64,000 nt of DNA from Haloplanus salinarum (lineage in GTDB: Archaea > Halobacteriota > Halobacteria > Halobacteriales > Haloferacaceae), in NCBI RefSeq assembly GCF_024498175.1, contig NZ_CP101823.1, forward strand, positions 1,054,001 through 1,118,000, given 5' to 3'. The stretch's first letter is position 1. Each line of letters opens with the position of its first letter. Shown piece by piece: positions 4,574 through 26,007 of this stretch. The position numbers and the translations under genes were made by a program. The notes beneath the pieces are model-generated. The model was not told the origin of the DNA. It was given only the letters and a program-made list of their open reading frames with translations, and searched no databases.

Positions 4574-5197
4574 ATGTCTGCCAAAAATCGAACTTCTACG
4601 TTTGGTCGAAACGGTCATCAATCGAATCCTGCTCGAAAAGAAGATCAGTACAGTCAACACTCCTCGTATCCTTCTGGAGTCTCCGAACTGGACGAGAACG
4701 GCTTCGTCCCCGCCAGAACGACGTTCCACTCCAACGACGCCCCGGTCGGACAGACTCACTGGTTCGATCGAGCATGGGGAGTCCATCACGGCCTGATGCC
4801 CTCAAAATGGCGCGCAGTGATCGCCGAGCATGGTCGTGATCTTGACGAGGTCGAGGAGGGTCTGAGAGCCTCCCCCAAAGGACGCGACCGACATCAAGTC
4901 GTGGACTGCGTTCTGGATAACCTCCCAGACCGAATCCGTGAGAGTGCCCGACATCGGTTCCTCAGTATGGATACAAATGATGCTCGGCGATTCAACGGTC
5001 ACTATTCAGGTGTCCGCGGTGCAGTAATCAGCGCGTGTATTTCCGTTCTTGAGGATAGCAAAGAATTCCCGGACGACGCTTCGGAGACCGTCTGGTTCAA
5101 CGGGGTTCTTGAACCACTCTGTGCAGAACTGGGCACGGATCCAGACGGACAGATCCGTCTCGCTCGTAAGGTCTGGGGAGGTGATGAGAATGAATAG
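4574..5197 (+). CDS. Hypothetical protein, primase-operon partner
   Basis: 207 residues, acidic, with a probably disordered start (residues 1-40). A more folded region follows, with WFDRAWGVHHGLMPSKW and a helical stretch DRHQVVDCVLDNLPDRIRESARHRFL. I do not recognise a family. It overlaps the downstream primase-like gene by 8 bases, and the GGAGG that serves that gene lies inside its own last codons. It is therefore probably co-expressed with the primase and may be a replication accessory protein of the same former plasmid or virus. Confidence 0.6.
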   Translation: MSAKNRTSTFGRNGHQSNPARKEDQYSQHSSYPSGVSELDENGFVPARTTFHSNDAPVGQTHWFDRAWGVHHGLMPSKWRAVIAEHGRDLDEVEEGLRASPKGRDRHQVVDCVLDNLPDRIRESARHRFLSMDTNDARRFNGHYSGVRGAVISACISVLEDSKEFPDDASETVWFNGVLEPLCAELGTDPDGQIRLARKVWGGDENE

Positions 5198-6272
5198 GGT
5201 CGTCTCCTCAAGCGACTACGGTAACGAGGACTTCGTCGGGGTTGACGCGGACGAACTCACCGAAGCACTAAAATTGAATAACCACTTCTTGGTTGCCCTG
5301 CTCAGCCCAGACGAGGAGAGGGACAAGATGCCACTCTATCCAAAAACGGGGGCAAATTCAGAAGCCGGACTCTCATTTGAGGAGGCTCGAGACATCGCCT
5401 CTGGACTCCAGGGGATGGATGACGTTAGAGCCGACGAGATGACCGTCCTCGGATACATGTTCTCCTCGGATAGCCAACTAGTCCTCATCGACTGGGATGA
5501 TATCCGGGACCCGAACGTCGGCGACGAAAGCGTGCCCGACTTCGTGATCGAGAGAATTCGGGAATTCGGAGGTTATGTCTCGGTGTCCGTATCGGGTACC
5601 GGTCTCCATCAAATCTGCAGAGTCAGTAATGAGACTCAAGAGCTACTCGCTGATCATAAATCGCGGGCGGATTTGCCAATCGATCAGCTGGACGGTCTTG
5701 ACGACCAGCCACATGTCGAGATTTATCAGGAGAAACGGTACGCAACGGTGACTGGAGATGTCTGGCGGGATCCATACACCCAGACCCTCTTCGACTCACT
5801 TGCGTCGACCGATAAACCGTTTAGGGAGTTCATCGATCACTACGTTCCTCAATCTAGTAACAACAGCTCAACGAGCGAGACGGTGCGAGGAAGTACTAAC
5901 GAAAAACAGACGCTGATCGACCTCGCAGATCAGCGAGCTCGGCAGTATAGCTACAAGTACTCAGATATGATCTGGCTCGAAACTGACTCTCCGACGGTTG
6001 AAGAGGTTCGAGCGACAGGATTCTATCAGGACCGAGAGTTCAGAGAACTCTGGAACGCGAATGAGAGCGGTTATCCCTCAATCTCTGAGGCAGATATGGC
6101 GTTCATCTCGAAGTTGTGGTACTACTGCGATAATCGAGAACTCGTCTGGGAATGCTTACGCAAATGCAATCGATATCGCCCGAAGTGGGACCGAAATAAC
6201 TACCTGAATCGAACGATCGAAGAAACCCGAGACAACGATCGGTACGACGGCAAGTACTGCTCTCCGAGCTAG
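5190..6272 (+). CDS. NrS-1-type primase/polymerase-like protein
   Basis: 360 residues. VLIDWDD (98-104) supplies an acidic pair, SVSVSGTGLH (131-140) is the S-x-SGxGxH motif, and HVEIYQ...RYATVTGD (175-190) matches the third primase motif of plasmid and virus archaeo-eukaryotic-type primases. The last 70 residues (DMAFISKLWYYC, RPKWDRNNYLNRTI) match the helical bundle that follows the primase core in NrS-1-like enzymes. No helicase domain follows. The start at 5190 has GGAGG eight bases upstream; 5184 is an alternative. It implies a replicon origin for this segment. Confidence 0.7.
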   Translation: MNRVVSSSDYGNEDFVGVDADELTEALKLNNHFLVALLSPDEERDKMPLYPKTGANSEAGLSFEEARDIASGLQGMDDVRADEMTVLGYMFSSDSQLVLIDWDDIRDPNVGDESVPDFVIERIREFGGYVSVSVSGTGLHQICRVSNETQELLADHKSRADLPIDQLDGLDDQPHVEIYQEKRYATVTGDVWRDPYTQTLFDSLASTDKPFREFIDHYVPQSSNNSSTSETVRGSTNEKQTLIDLADQRARQYSYKYSDMIWLETDSPTVEEVRATGFYQDREFRELWNANESGYPSISEADMAFISKLWYYCDNRELVWECLRKCNRYRPKWDRNNYLNRTIEETRDNDRYDGKYCSPS

Positions 6273-11529: not shown

Positions 11530-11889
11530 ATGACGACGAATAGCAGGACAGAGCGTTTGTTGGATAGTATGTTCACCAATCTTGGCCACCAGCTTCGGCG
11601 ATATCTCCTGTACTGTTTGTTTTGGGATACAAACCCGATGTCGTTGCCTCGAGTCGCGGATCAAGCGGTTGAATGGCAAACGGGAAAGCCAGCAGAGGCG
11701 GTTGTTGATGAACGATTAGAGATCTATATGGCGCTTTATCACGACCATCTGCCGGGCCTCGTTGATGACGATGTCATCTCCTATCACCAAGATGAGGACG
11801 TGGTTGAGTTGGATACCGCTGCCGACCTGTTCGAACCATACGTCAGACAGGCATTTCAAGACGAAATCAATACTGGGGGTTCCCGCTAA
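11530..11889 (+). CDS. DUF7344 winged-helix protein
   Basis: 119 residues. The pattern is that of the haloarchaeal DUF7344 domain: LGHQLRRYLLYCLF as the first helix, SLPRVADQAVEWQTG as the recognition region, RLEIYMALYHDHLPGL, then DDDVISYHQDEDVVELD. These are small winged-helix proteins, probably DNA-binding regulators. It sits just upstream of the large direct repeat and origin-like region, so it could be a regulator of that replicon. Confidence 0.7.
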   Translation: MTTNSRTERLLDSMFTNLGHQLRRYLLYCLFWDTNPMSLPRVADQAVEWQTGKPAEAVVDERLEIYMALYHDHLPGLVDDDVISYHQDEDVVELDTAADLFEPYVRQAFQDEINTGGSR

Positions 11890-11965
11890 AACCCATCCTG
11901 TGAGTATCTTACTTGGTATTGAGCGTGCTCTCCAGCCCGGAATTCCTTCGGTCGTCCCCAACGAG

Positions 11966-12309
11966 ACTATTGTTCGTCCTTTGGTGGACCCTGGTCCGCA
12001 CCCACCACTCCCCGTGTGGGAACGCTAACTTTTCTGGACTGGTTCCGTCTTTCTCGCCCTGCCTCATTCGTCTCAAAAGAGTATATGTTGTTTGTAGCTG
12101 AGACTGCCTTGCCCTTATCAGCGTCATAAACGTCCTGTTGCAATAGTTGTTTCACTCACTTACTGCAACCAGTTGTTTCAAATACACCGTTACCTCTCTG
12201 TTCCACCCGATCTGGCTCTACATAGGTGTGAGAGGACTACTACGTCCACTCATTCATGATATCGCAGAGAAGCAACCTCAGTCTGGTCTGGGAAAACGGC
12301 GCACGGGTT
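11966..12309 (+). repeat. Large direct repeat, left copy
   Basis: This aligns with 14124-14469 at an almost constant offset of about 2,158-2,160 bases. The match is close by eye up to about 12,250 and looser to 12,309. It contains a full dispersed element (12000-12097) and two internal copies of a TGCAACYAGTTGTTTCA-like 17-mer (about 12138-12180). Confidence 0.75.
12000..12097 (+). repeat. Dispersed element, copy 5
   Basis: CCCCGTGTGGGAACGCTAAC at 12010-12029 opens the copy (core 12016-12022), and GTATATGTTGTTTGTAG at 12081-12097 closes it. It lies inside the left large direct repeat. Confidence 0.65.
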
Positions 12310-12375
12310 AGTGAGACCACCGTGTCCAATAGTTTCAATAGGTATAGTGGTCGTTCAACACCTCGTTGTGTACTT

Positions 12376-12800
12376 AAAACACACCCACCCCTATTTTCAA
12401 CAGGTTAGCCGACCACGAGGGAGGGGGTCAACGCCGTCGGTTGGTCGTGAGTATATAAACACGGTCGGTATCTCCCCCACGATCAGCTGTCGCAAGCACG
12501 CCTTTCCCACCCTGTCCTTCGGTTGTTGCCTCTAGCAGTACAAGCAATTACTACTACTACCGTTAACTTTATTATGTAACATAATAAGGGGTGGGAGGGG
12601 GTGCTGTTGAAGACGAGTAAGACGGATGATACGTCCACTGTGTTCTCCACGACCACCGTGTTTACTCCGTGAGCAGTGTCACCGTGTTCATGCCAGCGAC
12701 CCCCTCCCCCTTGTTGAGCCTGAAGCTGTTGAAATAACGGGGGGGTGTGTTTTATGTTCGATTCGATCTGTTGAACGGGTACCCCACCTTTCGAAACAAG
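12376..12800. other. Replication-origin-like region
   Basis: A 28-bp inverted repeat pairs 12376-12403 with 12726-12753: CTGTTGAAA, four variable positions, then a G-run and TGTGTTTT; 24 of 28 positions agree. Extra partial copies of GTTGAA next to G-runs occur at about 12593-12612 and 12769-12785. Between the arms lies an AT-rich palindrome (12569-12587, TTATTATG-TAA-CATAATAA). G-run-tagged inverted repeats around an unwinding element are the layout of Orc1/Cdc6 origins in haloarchaea. No orc1/cdc6 gene is in the window and the motif is not the usual chromosomal one. Confidence 0.5.
12569..12587. repeat. AT-rich palindrome
   Basis: TTATTATG and CATAATAA are perfect 8-bp arms around TAA. The palindrome sits roughly midway between the arms of the 28-bp inverted repeat. 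It could be a duplex-unwinding element or a hairpin. Confidence 0.6.
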
Positions 12801-12889: not shown

Positions 12890-13678
12890 TTAGAGTAGCA
12901 TGTCAAGCCATGGAGCAAATTCAAGAATCCATTCGCAGTAAGGTTCATCTTTCCAACCAGCGAGTTCGTCCTGACTGTTCCATTCGGTGACTGCTTTTGA
13001 GCCAAAGAGGCATTCCCAGCAAAGAAGGATAAGATTTTGTGGCACATGCGCTAGCTTGGGCGCGACGGCAGGCGGAATCACATGTACAGCGCGGACATCT
13101 GGACCTGTATATGTGAGTTCAACCTGCCCCTCTTTGTAGAGATGTTTCCTTGCCTCTCTTCGAGCGTGACCACAAGCGAGGCAAGCACTATTCCCCTGTC
13201 GAAGAGCAACAGCTTCAGAACATGACCACCGGGTCCGTTGCTCGGGGTGTAATTTGGATTTGGGCCAGAGAGCGAGGTCTATCTCCTCGCCTGTGATATC
13301 CGAGAAGAGCCAAGTCATGATGTGGGGACGACCCCCTTCCCAGTCCTCCCATCTGCCATGACATGAGGGGCAGAGAGGGATCAAGTTTGCCTCGGCGTTT
13401 CTCGATTTATGTGCTCTAAGATCCGCTCCACAATCCTTGTTGATTTGGCGCATACTTGGGAAGTAATGCTGCTTAACCAAGTGGTGGAGCTCACGTTGCC
13501 GACTCCCGTTTTGACCGACATTACTCTGACTGGCTATGCGCTGGGAACAACTGGCGCAGTACCATTTCCCCTCCCGAGGGTCCTGCCCCTGTTCATTATA
13601 CTCACTCCAGATATCTCCGTATTGAGCCTCTTCTCCTCTTCCTTGGTACGATGCCACCTTGATGGTTAGACTGTCCAT
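12890..13678 (-). CDS. Double HNH-domain protein
   Basis: 262 residues. The first HNH module has CASC (41-44), LHH (64-66), N98 and CPSCH (103-107), with all the usual metal and catalytic positions. A second module follows the same order: CLAC (166-169), VHVIP (198-202), N215 and CWEC (220-223). It has one His where the first has two, so it may be a zinc-structural or degenerate copy. It lies between the origin-like region and the right direct repeat. It is probably a nicking or cleaving endonuclease of the mobile unit. Confidence 0.7.
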   Translation of the reverse strand: MDSLTIKVASYQGRGEEAQYGDIWSEYNEQGQDPREGKWYCASCSQRIASQSNVGQNGSRQRELHHLVKQHYFPSMRQINKDCGADLRAHKSRNAEANLIPLCPSCHGRWEDWEGGRPHIMTWLFSDITGEEIDLALWPKSKLHPEQRTRWSCSEAVALRQGNSACLACGHARREARKHLYKEGQVELTYTGPDVRAVHVIPPAVAPKLAHVPQNLILLCWECLFGSKAVTEWNSQDELAGWKDEPYCEWILEFAPWLDMLL

Positions 13679-14123
13679 GGATGTAGAGTAAGGTGGCCTG
13701 TTGGTGTATTTTTTGTACTATATGGTGAAATAAATTTAATCTTCTCGGGAAAAGATGGATATTTGCAAATTTCCATCAAATAAAATAAGTAAGCCAAAAT
13801 ACAGAACAAAGGGCGAATCAGCTCTCCAAGGAGTCTCGACAATGCCGGAATCAATTGATCTTGATGCTGGCGGACGTGATTGACGCAAGTTTTTCTCACG
13901 TTCGAAATGAGGTCTCTGTGTTCTGTATACAGGCAACGTCTATTCTGATGTATGCGAAGTTCTCTCTCATTCTGCTCAGATGAGTTGAGGGGGGCCATCG
14001 CCAACGATCTATTCCGACCTGTGCGCAGCGGGGAACTGTAACTGGACTTTTCGGCTCAGGAGCGACAATTCCTCGTTGGGTATCGGGGCGTGATCTCTCG
14101 CCTCGAAATTTCTTCAATCTCGG
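13679..14123. other. Gene-free gap
   Basis: AT-rich sequence follows the start of the HNH gene, including its likely promoter on the minus strand (CATATAGTAC). Minus frames extend through it but have no family features and run into the repeat. No tRNA or hairpin is seen. Confidence 0.35.
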
Positions 14124-14469
14124 ACTATTGCTCTGTCCTCTGGTGGATCCTGATTCCCGCCCACCAACCCCCCGTGTGGGAACGCTAACTTTTCCGGACT
14201 GGTTCTGTCTTTCTCGCCCTACCTCGTTCGCCTCAATAGAATATATGTCGTTTGTAGCTGAGACTGCTCTGCCCGTATTAGCGTCACAAACGTAGAGTTG
14301 CACTGGTTGTTTCAATCACCTACTGCAACTGGTTGTTTCAAACACATAGTTGAACTCTCTGTTCCAACTGAACCGGCTCTGGACGATCGTGTAGGGCTAC
14401 TACGTCGACTTCTTCTGGATTCTCACAGAGACACAATCTGATTGATGCGCACGACAGCGCGTACGGGTT
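14124..14469 (+). repeat. Large direct repeat, right copy
   Basis: Counterpart of 11966-12309 in the same orientation. It has the dispersed element at 14160-14257 and the paired TGCAACTGGTTGTTTCA-like 17-mers. The origin-like sequence that follows the left copy is not repeated here. Recombination between the copies would release a circle of about 2.16 kb carrying the origin-like region and the HNH gene. Confidence 0.75.
14160..14257 (+). repeat. Dispersed element, copy 6
   Basis: CCCCGTGTGGGAACGCTAAC (core 14176-14182) opens it and ATATATGTCGTTTGTAG closes it at 14241-14257. It is the equivalent of 12000-12097. Confidence 0.65.
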
Positions 14470-16710: not shown

Positions 16711-16875
16711 TTAATGTCTCTCGTCCTCTGTCTCTTCTCCCTCAGCTTGTCGCCGAATTGCGTCCCTATGTTTTTCAGCTATCGGATCAGACTCATCAAG
16801 TGGTGCTGTGTCCTTGTTGGAGAGATCCTTGATGAGCTCATCCATTCGTTTGATTATCTCTTCAGGACTCCGCAT
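16711..16875 (-). CDS. Small acidic protein, MRSPEEIIKRMDEL
   Basis: 54 residues with a good start and a regular amphipathic helix (SPEEIIKRMDELIKDL), then SDPIAEKHRDAIRRQAEGE. No family is known to me. Its first nine codons and about 100 bases upstream are repeated at 20698-20818, where the copy is fused to an integrase fragment. That duplication supports a genuine expression unit. The long plus frame over it is a shadow. Confidence 0.5.
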   Translation of the reverse strand: MRSPEEIIKRMDELIKDLSNKDTAPLDESDPIAEKHRDAIRRQAEGEETEDERH

Positions 16876-16972
16876 AGCGAAGGATTACTCCTGATACACG
16901 ATGGGTTTTGGGGGAGCCGAGACCTGCTGTCTGTACCGCTTCTCTCTCCAGTAGTAACACGATGAGATCGGA
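16850..16972. repeat. Duplicated start region, copy 1
   Basis: This matches 20698-20818: a ctcttcaggactccgcatag word, then gatacacgatgggttt and agtaacacgatgaga. It covers the start codon and upstream region of the small minus-strand gene. The gap continuing to 17198 has no other feature. Confidence 0.65.
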
Positions 16973-20261: not shown

Positions 20262-20702
20262 CGAGATAGTCACTCTCTCGGAGCAGATTTTGGTGAGTAC
20301 ATTTTCCGAGAGATGGTGTGTGATTGATGAACGACGAAGCAGGTGAGCGGAAACTGAACTCGGACAGGACGAGTAGTTTGAGTACTCTGTCGCTTCGCAT
20401 TCGTCTGGCTCTCGATCATGCGGGCACTCGGCCCCGTACCAGCACGGACGCGTCACCTTATAGGCGATTTTGGTGATGCTCTGGTAGTGATACCGTCCTT
20501 GCTTGGAGGCGAGAAAGGGTTCCCGTCCGTGACTATCGGTGACTTCCGGACGACACCCTTCGATATACGCGTCGATCGCGTCGGCCAGCTGTTCGTCAGT
20601 AACGGAGACGTTCCGTTCTCCTTCGTCACCGAGCTTAAATCGAGTCCCTGAGTCTGGCTGGTTGCGAATCTCAAGGTACCGTTCGTCTGGATACCGGTTT
20701 AA
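20262..20702 (-). pseudogene. Truncated tyrosine recombinase
   Basis: The sequence reads in one frame as a close relative of residues about 168-310 of the intact recombinase at 23,764-24,777, from PDERYLEIRNQPDSGTR to HLLRRSSITHHLSE and KICSERV. It has the HxxR box. It lacks both the first half with the catalytic Arg and the C-terminal end with the Tyr. The left edge changes abruptly to unrelated codons at about 20,262. The right edge joins the copied start of the small MRSPEEII gene at about 20,700. Confidence 0.8.
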
Positions 20703-20818
20703 TTATCTCTTCAGGACTCCGCATAGCCAAGGATTACACCTGATACACGATGGGTTTTAGCGAGCCGAGACATGCTGTCTGTACGGCACCCCCCCTGTAG
20801 TAACACGATGAGACTTGG
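20698..20818. repeat. Duplicated start region, copy 2
   Basis: Copy of 16850-16972, broken after nine codons of the small gene (MRSPEEIIK) and fused to the recombinase fragment out of frame. The junction at about 20,700 is a recombination breakpoint. The gap that follows to 20,951 shows no gene. Confidence 0.65.
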
Positions 20819-23763: not shown

Positions 23764-24777
23764 TTAGAGATCTCGCAAATGCTTCTCCCTATTCTGCCGT
23801 TTTTCTTCCTTCGAACGTGCGTCGTAGTGTAAATCCAGCGTCTGCGGAGAGACGGACATTCTCTCGGAGCAGATTTTTGTGGGAATATCCTCCGAGAGAT
23901 GATGGGTTATCGACGAGCGACGGAGAGGATGTGCAGAGACAGAACTCGGACAGGAGGAGTAATTCGAATATTCTGTTGCTTCGCATTCGTCTGGCTCCCG
24001 ATCGTGCGGACACTCGGCTCCATACCAACAGGGCCGTGTTACTTTGTAACAAATCTTCGTCAGACTCTGATAGTGATACCGCCCCTGGTTGGATGCAAGA
24101 AGGGGCTCTCGTCCGTGATCATCGGTGATTTCTGGACGACGTCCCTCAAGATACGTGTCGAGCGCATCGGCCAGTCGTTCGTCGGTAACGCTGACGTTTC
24201 TCTCTCCCTCGTCGCCGAGTTTGAGTCGAGTCCCTGAGTCTGGCCGGTTGCGAATCTCGAGGTACTGTTCGTCAGGATGCCAGTCATCAACGTCAAGAGC
24301 TCGGAGACCAGATCGGCGCATTCCGCAGTGCCATAGAAGGTGGAAGACGAGATGGGCCGTTCGAGCCCACTGGTATTCAACGAGATAGTTGATTATCTCG
24401 TTTGCTCTCTCTGACGAGATGGCCACATCTCGAGCCTTGTCTTGGGATGAGACGTTCGGAATGACGACGTTGTCAGCAGTTCCTTCTCGAACCAAATCGG
24501 ATGACTCCGCCCAACGGAGAAACACACGGAGTGTGTGAAGATGTTGTTCAATCGTTACGAGGTTACACTCCGTCTCGTTGATGCGCCAGTTCTTGTACTG
24601 CTGGAGATTGTAGCCGTCAACCTCATCTAACGAATTGAGCCCGTTCTGGTTGGCCCATTCGATGAAGTATCCGAGCCGATACTGATGGTTATCCAGCGTC
24701 GATTCAGCGACGTCGTGTCGAGATTGGAGATACTGTTCGACTCCTTCCTCGGGTTGGACTTCATGAAGCTCTGTCAT
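23764..24777 (-). CDS. Tyrosine recombinase (integrase)
   Basis: 337 residues with the full two-domain layout. The N-terminal SAM-like core-binding domain spans 10-105 (STLDNHQYRLGYFIEWA). The catalytic domain has GMRRSGLRALDVDDW (Arg154), HPLRRSSITHHL (His283, Arg286) and LHYDAR (Tyr318). A cysteine-rich insertion (C250, C256, C265, C276) in the catalytic domain could hold zinc. It is the only intact recombinase in the window and sits at the right end of the island, so it is the likely mover. No tRNA adjoins it. Confidence 0.9.
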   Translation of the reverse strand: MTELHEVQPEEGVEQYLQSRHDVAESTLDNHQYRLGYFIEWANQNGLNSLDEVDGYNLQQYKNWRINETECNLVTIEQHLHTLRVFLRWAESSDLVREGTADNVVIPNVSSQDKARDVAISSERANEIINYLVEYQWARTAHLVFHLLWHCGMRRSGLRALDVDDWHPDEQYLEIRNRPDSGTRLKLGDEGERNVSVTDERLADALDTYLEGRRPEITDDHGREPLLASNQGRYHYQSLTKICYKVTRPCWYGAECPHDREPDECEATEYSNYSSCPSSVSAHPLRRSSITHHLSEDIPTKICSERMSVSPQTLDLHYDARSKEEKRQNREKHLRDL

Positions 24778-25182
24778 GCCGAACTCCGTCCCTCAGATAA
24801 CGGCCGAGTGGAGTTCCGTCAGGGGTGATCTCGTCACGTCTGCATCTACCGTTTGGGAGAGGCCCCGGCCCCGCGAGCACCGCGAGCGGGGTGAAGGGAG
24901 ACGCTTCCGGAACGGGCGCGTGAGCGCCCGAAAGCCCGGAACGGCTCCCGCACGGTGAGACTCCCGGCGAGTCCATTTCCTTTCGCTCACTTCGTTCGCT
25001 TCAGTCAATGGACTCGCCTGAGTCCCCCTCGCTCCCTGCGGTCGCTCGCGGGACTCCCGGCGAGTCCTTGTGTTTGGTGTTTCTATCGTTCCTGGGGTAG
25101 AATCCTAGTCTCCGAAGTGTAGGTGAAGACAGCTTAGCGATTAGTCTGATCGCTTCGGCTCGTTAGCCCGCTCCAAGTCTTA
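24778..25182. other. Island border with inverted repeats
   Basis: No convincing gene. GGCGAGTCCATT at about 24968 pairs with AATGGACTCGCC at about 25006 (12-bp arms). CTCCCGGCGAGTCC recurs at about 24960 and 25052 in the same orientation. These may be recombinase binding sites, a terminator or decay at the island edge. The base composition changes here. Confidence 0.45.
24968..25017. repeat. 12-bp inverted repeat
   Basis: GGCGAGTCCATT and AATGGACTCGCC are perfect arms around a loop of about 26 bases. The outer GACTCCCGGCGAGTCC word reappears about 90 bases further right. It lies some 190 bases from the recombinase start codon. Confidence 0.55.
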
Positions 25183-26007
25183 GTGACGAACGAATCCTAC
25201 GAGGTCGAGAAGGACGCACACGCCTACGTGGTGGCCGTCGAGGACGTGGGTGGAGTGATTGTACTCCGAGAGTGCGAATGCCCTGCTGACCGTTTCAGGG
25301 ACGACTACGACTGCAAGCACAAGGTCGCGCTGGCAACGATTGGCGGGCAGGTAGTGATGGAAGCGGCGGCAGCCTTCTCTGAGAAACGACTGGCATCGAA
25401 GTTTCCGGAAAACGACCATGTGAGAGCAAAGATCAGACAAACGCTTCAGCGACTGCGTGATAGGGGGGAAGTCGACTTTCTGGACGAAAATGGGGCCTAC
25501 CGAATCAACGACTTGGACCTCAACGCCGAACTCGACCGGGAGCGTTCCGAAGCCGACAAGTCACGTACACCGGACCCCGATTCGGAACCGCAACTGACCG
25601 AAGATGAGGAACGTTTCACGGAAACTCGCCGTCGGGCACGCGATTCCGATTTCATCGAGGCTGTTAGAGAAGCGTACAATCAGACCTGCGTAGTCTGTGG
25701 CAGTAGCCGAGAGACTCCCGACGGACAGCCCGAAGTCGAGGCCGCACACATCTATCCGAAATCAGCGGGTGGCGCGGACGACGTGCGAAACGGCGTCGCT
25801 CTGTGCCGCCTCCACCATTGGGCGTTCGATACCGGCTGGCTCGCGTTTACTGACGACCACGAGATTCTGGTGAAGGATGTCCCCGAACGCGAAGGGTACT
25901 ACGAGTTCAAGCAGTTAGAGGGGAACTCGCTGGTTCTTCCCGAGGAGGGTGGCGTGGAACCTCACCCGACGTATCTACAAGAACACCGCGAACTGCACGG
26001 GTTTTGA
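25183..26007 (+). CDS. SWIM / winged-helix / HNH fusion protein
   Basis: 274 residues, GTG start. Residues 31-46 are a SWIM zinc finger (CEC ... YDCKH). Residues 73-108 match the winged helix of Dam-replacing-type nucleases (ENDHVRAKIRQTLQRLRDRGEVDFL). Residues 155-218 form an HNH nuclease: CVVC, EAAHIYPKSAGG, N203, C208, LHHWAFD. The SWIM part usually occurs as a separate small protein, so this looks like a gene fusion made near the island border. It is probably a restriction-type DNA endonuclease. Confidence 0.75.
   Translation: MTNESYEVEKDAHAYVVAVEDVGGVIVLRECECPADRFRDDYDCKHKVALATIGGQVVMEAAAAFSEKRLASKFPENDHVRAKIRQTLQRLRDRGEVDFLDENGAYRINDLDLNAELDRERSEADKSRTPDPDSEPQLTEDEERFTETRRRARDSDFIEAVREAYNQTCVVCGSSRETPDGQPEVEAAHIYPKSAGGADDVRNGVALCRLHHWAFDTGWLAFTDDHEILVKDVPEREGYYEFKQLEGNSLVLPEEGGVEPHPTYLQEHRELHGF

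What the first reader, a model, noticed from the sequence alone, without database searches (positions are those of the whole stretch)
12376..12800. Candidate replication origin without its initiator
A 28-bp inverted repeat with 24 matching positions (12376-12403 and 12726-12753) carries GTTGAA plus a G-run. It flanks a perfect AT-rich palindrome (12569-12587), with further partial motifs nearby. This is the layout of Orc1/Cdc6 origins, but the motif is unlike the common haloarchaeal one and no orc1 gene is in the window. It may belong to an integrated plasmid whose initiator lies elsewhere, or be a new origin type.
Basis: partly seen in the sequence, partly recalled or inferred. Interest (0 to 1): 0.65.

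Follow-up and report, generated by a model that had tools for sequence, protein, structure and literature searches.

The report
Replication origin lacking a linked initiator
A salt-loving archaeon carries, inside a 27.6-kb mobile element integrated at a tRNA gene, a sequence built like a standard archaeal replication origin, but the element does not encode the Orc1/Cdc6 initiator that normally sits beside such origins, so it probably borrows one from elsewhere in the cell or has lost its own.

Summary
The 28-bp repeat (24/28) is the core of a spaced inverted repeat with 78/80-bp arms (12352-12429 / 12698-12777, 74% identity). Each arm holds an inner G/C-rich box, a TGTTGAAA + G-string box with the G-string outward, and an outer TGTTGAA 42 bp further out. 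Between the arms lies one of the least stable stretches of the element. The same test (spaced inverted repeat with outward G-strings) is met at 67 of 134 haloarchaeal orc loci; in non-orc DNA only coding artefacts meet it. The region sits in the middle of a 27.6-kb element integrated at tRNA-Ala (integrase, 15-bp att repeat, NrS-1-type primase-polymerase). The element's GC skew switches near it, also after correcting for gene strand. No orc gene or relic was found in the element. The motif is not the oriC1 box and no second paired copy was found anywhere searched. Best reading: an ORB-type bidirectional origin of an integrated plasmid-like element, with a private box sequence and no linked initiator, which was either supplied in trans or lost. 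Whether it fires today is unknown.

The parts
12352..12429 (-). left arm of the spaced inverted repeat
12698..12777 (+). right arm of the spaced inverted repeat
12376..12403 (-). left ORB-like box, TGTTGAAA core with outward G-string
12726..12753 (+). right ORB-like box, TGTTGAAA core with outward G-string
12354..12360 (-). outer TGTTGAA, 42 bp from the inner one
12769..12775 (+). outer TGTTGAA, 42 bp from the inner one
12605..12611 (+). central TGTTGAA
12414..12429 (.). inner G-rich inverted repeat, left copy (compare the oriC1 enhancer of H. hispanica, PMC3936714)
12698..12713 (.). inner G-rich inverted repeat, right copy
12537..12587 (.). probable unwinding element, AT-rich, including palindrome 12569-12587
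   Evidence: least stable 50 bp between the arms, 99.8th percentile of the island
11530..11889 (+). DUF7344 protein (small haloarchaeal domain), gene to the left of the origin gap
12890..13678 (-). HNH nuclease gene to the right of the origin gap
5049..6272 (+). NrS-1-type primase-polymerase of the element (start codon uncertain, perhaps near 5190)
23764..24777 (-). tyrosine integrase of the element
24854..24868 (+). right att site, 15 bp identical to part of tRNA-Ala(GGC) at C1:1051207-1051279, which lies left of the window

Best explanation
12352-12777 is the ORB-type replication origin of a 27.6-kb plasmid-like element integrated at tRNA-Ala(GGC). Inferred mechanism: an Orc1/Cdc6 protein binds the two inverted TGTTGAAA + G-string boxes, helped by the outer TGTTGAA copies and the inner G-rich boxes; the AT-rich palindromic stretch at 12537-12587 opens; helicase is loaded and forks leave in both directions. 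Shown here: the architecture, its match to orc-linked origins, the integrated element, the skew switch, and absence of any recognisable orc in the element. Inferred: protein binding, unwinding and firing, and that the initiator acts in trans from a distant orc gene or was lost.
For: Spaced inverted repeat with outward G-strings at 67/134 orc loci, 1/40 controls (coding artefact), and the candidate is the only hit in the window. Arms align best with arms of orc-linked origins, sharing inner C-box, G-string and TGTGT tail. Same layout as this genome's oriC1 and the 1.426-Mb origin, with 322 nt between the 28-bp boxes against 196 and 329 nt. Unstable stretch between the arms. GC-skew contrast at the candidate exceeded by only 1.6% of positions; replichore effect z = 3.0 after gene-strand correction. 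Element with integrase, att repeat and prim-pol.
Against: No adjacent orc and no relic of one, whereas tested H. hispanica origins depend on co-located cdc6 genes (PMC3936714). The box pair has no homologue to show conservation. Relatives with a similar prim-pol lack it. The skew minimum is broad (10.5-14.4 kb), and the controls were not matched for intergenic content.
Confidence: 0.77

Rival explanations
1. An element-encoded protein other than Orc starts replication here, for example the primase-polymerase (as in pRN1 or NrS-1) or the wHTH-like DUF7344 protein; the boxes only look like ORBs.
For: The element has a prim-pol and no orc; the DUF7344 gene ends 0.46 kb from the left arm.
Against: Three relatives with homologous prim-pols lack the repeat. 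The G-string, C-box and TGTGT tail match orc-linked origins in detail.
Confidence: 0.1
2. A regulatory site: operators for a repressor that binds TGTTGAA, in a long intergenic gap.
For: Five TGTTGAA copies with regular spacing; a small DNA-binding-like gene nearby.
Against: The nearest genes start or end more than 110 bp away and converge on the gap, which does not look like a promoter region; operators do not explain the outward G-strings, the unstable stretch or the skew.
Confidence: 0.06
3. A partition (centromere) or recombination site of the element.
For: Inverted repeats in a plasmid-like element.
Against: No ParA/ParB-type gene was recognised by Pfam among the 20 island proteins scanned; att is elsewhere.
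Confidence: 0.04
4. Ends of an insertion sequence or MITE.
For: Long inverted repeat; TGTTGAAA also occurs in an unrelated small inverted repeat in L062.
Against: Single copy in the genome, arms only 74% alike and conserved in blocks, no transposase between them.
Confidence: 0.03

Closest known systems
Haloarchaeal orc/cdc6-associated ORB origins (Wu et al. 2012, PMC3528665; Wu et al. 2014, PMC3936714)
   Same: Inverted boxes with outward G-string, inner G-rich inverted repeat, AT-rich stretch between, long intergenic gap, plasmid-like context
   Different: No orc within the 27.6-kb element; box core TGTTGAAA seen in no orc-linked origin examined
oriC1 of haloarchaea
   Same: Polarity of G-strings, inner G/C-rich boxes, GAAA before the G-string
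   Different: oriC1 box is (C/G)TTCCAC..GAAACGAAGGGGTGGGGGG in 30 loci; the candidate boxes score far below it
Plasmid PL47 of Haloquadratum walsbyi and two tRNA-integrated elements (L061/L062, L063/L064)
   Same: Homologous prim-pol (36-41%); shared CCCAC..GTGGGAA dyads; PL47 has neither orc nor rep according to PMC3528665
   Different: No ORB-like inverted repeat; PL47 also has a P4-family primase and ParA

Membership tests
Haloarchaeal orc/cdc6-adjacent ORB origins | At least two inverted ORB-like boxes flanking an AT-rich region | tested here: met
Haloarchaeal orc/cdc6-adjacent ORB origins | Halophile G-string at the end of the boxes | tested here: met
Haloarchaeal orc/cdc6-adjacent ORB origins | orc/cdc6 gene directly adjacent | tested here: not met
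Haloarchaeal orc/cdc6-adjacent ORB origins | Binding by Orc1/Cdc6 | not testable with these tools
   needs protein-DNA assay
Haloarchaeal orc/cdc6-adjacent ORB origins | Autonomous replication or marker-frequency peak | not testable with these tools
   only indirect support from GC skew
oriC1 family | oriC1 ORB consensus | tested here: not met
Prim-pol replicons (pRN1 / NrS-1 type) | Element encodes an archaeo-eukaryotic prim-pol | tested here: met
Prim-pol replicons (pRN1 / NrS-1 type) | Origin shared with relatives that carry the same prim-pol | tested here: not met
tRNA-integrated element | Integrase plus repeat of part of a tRNA at the other end | tested here: met

The most novel reading that the evidence does not exclude
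A mobile element that keeps an ORB-type origin with a private box sequence but no initiator, and is replicated by an Orc encoded elsewhere, for example one of the two orphan Orcs of this genome that have no such repeat beside them. This would be a trans-acting, satellite-like replicator-initiator pair in archaea, where pairs are reported as co-located.
Probability: 0.3. Interest if true: 0.75.

Novelty: new variant of a known kind. Interest (0 to 1): 0.52.

Why it matters
In haloarchaea the tested origins depend on the orc gene next to them, while many genomes carry more orc genes than origins. An origin without an orc, in a genome with two orcs that lack such a repeat, makes the question whether orphan Orcs serve distant origins directly testable. 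It also gives a concrete case of how an integrating element can bring an origin into a chromosome without its initiator.

Tried and rejected
Blastn of the region against plasmids and phages: nothing. A scan of genome contigs gave 19 single matches, all in non-haloarchaeal records, judged chance. Two-mismatch scan of 391 class genomes: three unpaired matches outside this genome; the one in L027 is part of a different, longer inverted repeat. DNA search of 170 family genomes: own genome only. TGTTGAA near the L023-type Orc: no paired box. oriC1 matrix: rejected as the box type. Relic orc: none. My first two pattern searches used a mis-spaced motif and are void. Rfam: no RNA family in the element. 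The strong fold of 12352-12777 as a single strand (z -7) reflects the inverted repeat and was not taken as separate evidence.

Full report
1. The observation. The 28-bp inverted repeat is present as described (24 of 28 positions) and the palindrome 12569-12587 is perfect. It is part of a longer spaced repeat, 12352-12429 against 12698-12777, 74% identical, E 2e-6. Sixty first-order Markov shuffles of the 25-kb AT-rich part gave at best 29 bits against 48 observed. Each arm reads, from the centre outward: a G/C-rich box (12414-12429, 12698-12713), the box TGTTGAAANNANGGGNGGGTGTG with the G-string outermost, and a second TGTTGAA 42 bp further out. In the genome this box is found only here at up to 2 mismatches.

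2. Where it lies. The window is C1:1054001-1118000 of a single-contig 3.45-Mb haloarchaeal genome. GC falls from about 0.69 to 0.49 directly after a tRNA-Ala(GGC) gene at C1:1051207-1051279 and recovers at about 25 kb in the window. A 15-bp piece of that tRNA recurs at 24854-24868, beside an integrase gene. The element is therefore about 27.6 kb, and the candidate lies near its middle, in a 1-kb gap between a DUF7344 gene and an HNH gene. The element encodes an NrS-1-type primase-polymerase, further nuclease-like genes (GIY-YIG, homing-endonuclease-associated repeat), an Nmad3 protein and many unknowns.

3. Is it an origin? I fetched 134 orc loci (130 from relatives plus four of this genome) and asked for a spaced inverted repeat with outward G-strings. 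67 of 134 have one; of 40 equally long control chunks one does, and it is a GC-rich coding match. Eight replicons or elements not known to carry an orc (about 279 kb with flanks; five of them listed as lacking orc in PMC3528665) gave one hit, inside coding repeats of plasmid pNMAG03. The candidate passes with E 6e-8 and is the only hit in the window. Its arms align best with arms of orc-linked origins, which share the inner C-box, the G-string and the TGTGT tail. The controls are not matched for intergenic content, so the contrast is strong but not a calibrated error rate.

4. Independent support. The least stable 50 bp between the arms is at the 99.8th percentile of the island. On the circularised element, the G-C contrast between the two halves drawn from the candidate is reached by only 1.6% of positions. 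After correcting for gene strand the replichore effect is z = 3.0 (block bootstrap), with the same sign in noncoding DNA, plus-strand and minus-strand genes. The skew minimum is broad (10.5-14.4 kb).

5. The missing initiator. Four orc genes were found in the genome, at 1.338, 1.426, 2.856 and 2.960 Mb. The 2.960-Mb gene has the canonical oriC1 and the 1.426-Mb gene an origin with another box. For the other two no such repeat was found beside them. The 1.338-Mb Orc belongs to a family about 95% conserved on plasmids of many genera, and none of 30 loci has a G-string repeat beside it. In the element no orc, not even a fragment, was found. An oriC1 matrix from 30 loci does not recognise the candidate boxes. 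So the initiator is unknown: an Orc in trans, or one that was lost. Published work in H. hispanica found origins to depend specifically on their co-located cdc6 genes (PMC3936714), and Wu et al. 2012 left open that origins away from orc genes exist (PMC3528665).

6. Relatives. The prim-pol has relatives in PL47 of H. walsbyi and in two integrated elements of other families. None has this repeat, so the origin is not a standard part of that prim-pol family. No second paired copy of the box was found in plasmids, phages, viral contigs or genomes.

7. Verdict. In layout it works like a haloarchaeal ORB origin. It cannot be filed as an orc/cdc6-adjacent origin, because that feature was tested and is not met. 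I call it a new variant of a known kind: an ORB-type origin with a private box and no linked initiator, in an integrated element. A relic whose initiator was lost and a live origin served in trans are both compatible with the data; I put about 0.3 on the second.

Noticed in passing
window 626(-), 3119(-), 7813(+), 9728(+), 12009(+), 14169(+), 14861(+); L062:1050; L063:11738, 16162, 19034; L064:1432, 6112; L065:33038, 30282, 9783: A dispersed motif, about CCCAC-N(2-5)-GTGGGAA(T/C), recurs mostly between genes across this element and in the related prim-pol elements and PL47; strict matches in the whole genome are confined to the element. In L062 and L064 it follows a conserved AATAGGGTATA(C/T)TATAGTG by about 150-205 bp. 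Possibly a regulatory or replication site of this element family.
   Followed up: partly
window 11965-12278 and 14123-14439: A 314-bp direct repeat (81% identical) on the left flank of the origin and again 2.2 kb to the right; each copy contains the motif above; no copy found in 98 relatives.
   Followed up: partly
window 20263-20698 vs 23849-24284; 16848-16967 vs 20697-20813: Partial second copies of integrase-gene sequence inside the element (79% identical) and another 120-bp repeat, suggesting nested or tandem integrations.
   Followed up: no
L023 (C1:1337680-1338708): A short Orc beside a ParA gene, about 95% identical on plasmids of many haloarchaeal genera, with no G-string repeat beside it in 30 of 30 loci: a widespread orphan Orc whose target is unclear.
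   Followed up: partly
L027:722-818 and 1509-1605: A 97-bp, 95% identical inverted repeat with G-runs and a second nested one (1007-1059 / 1384-1438), origin-like or transposon ends, in a genome of another family.
   Followed up: no
window 25183-26007: Just outside the att site: a relative, below the curated cut-off, of phosphorothioated-DNA-binding restriction endonucleases.
   Followed up: no
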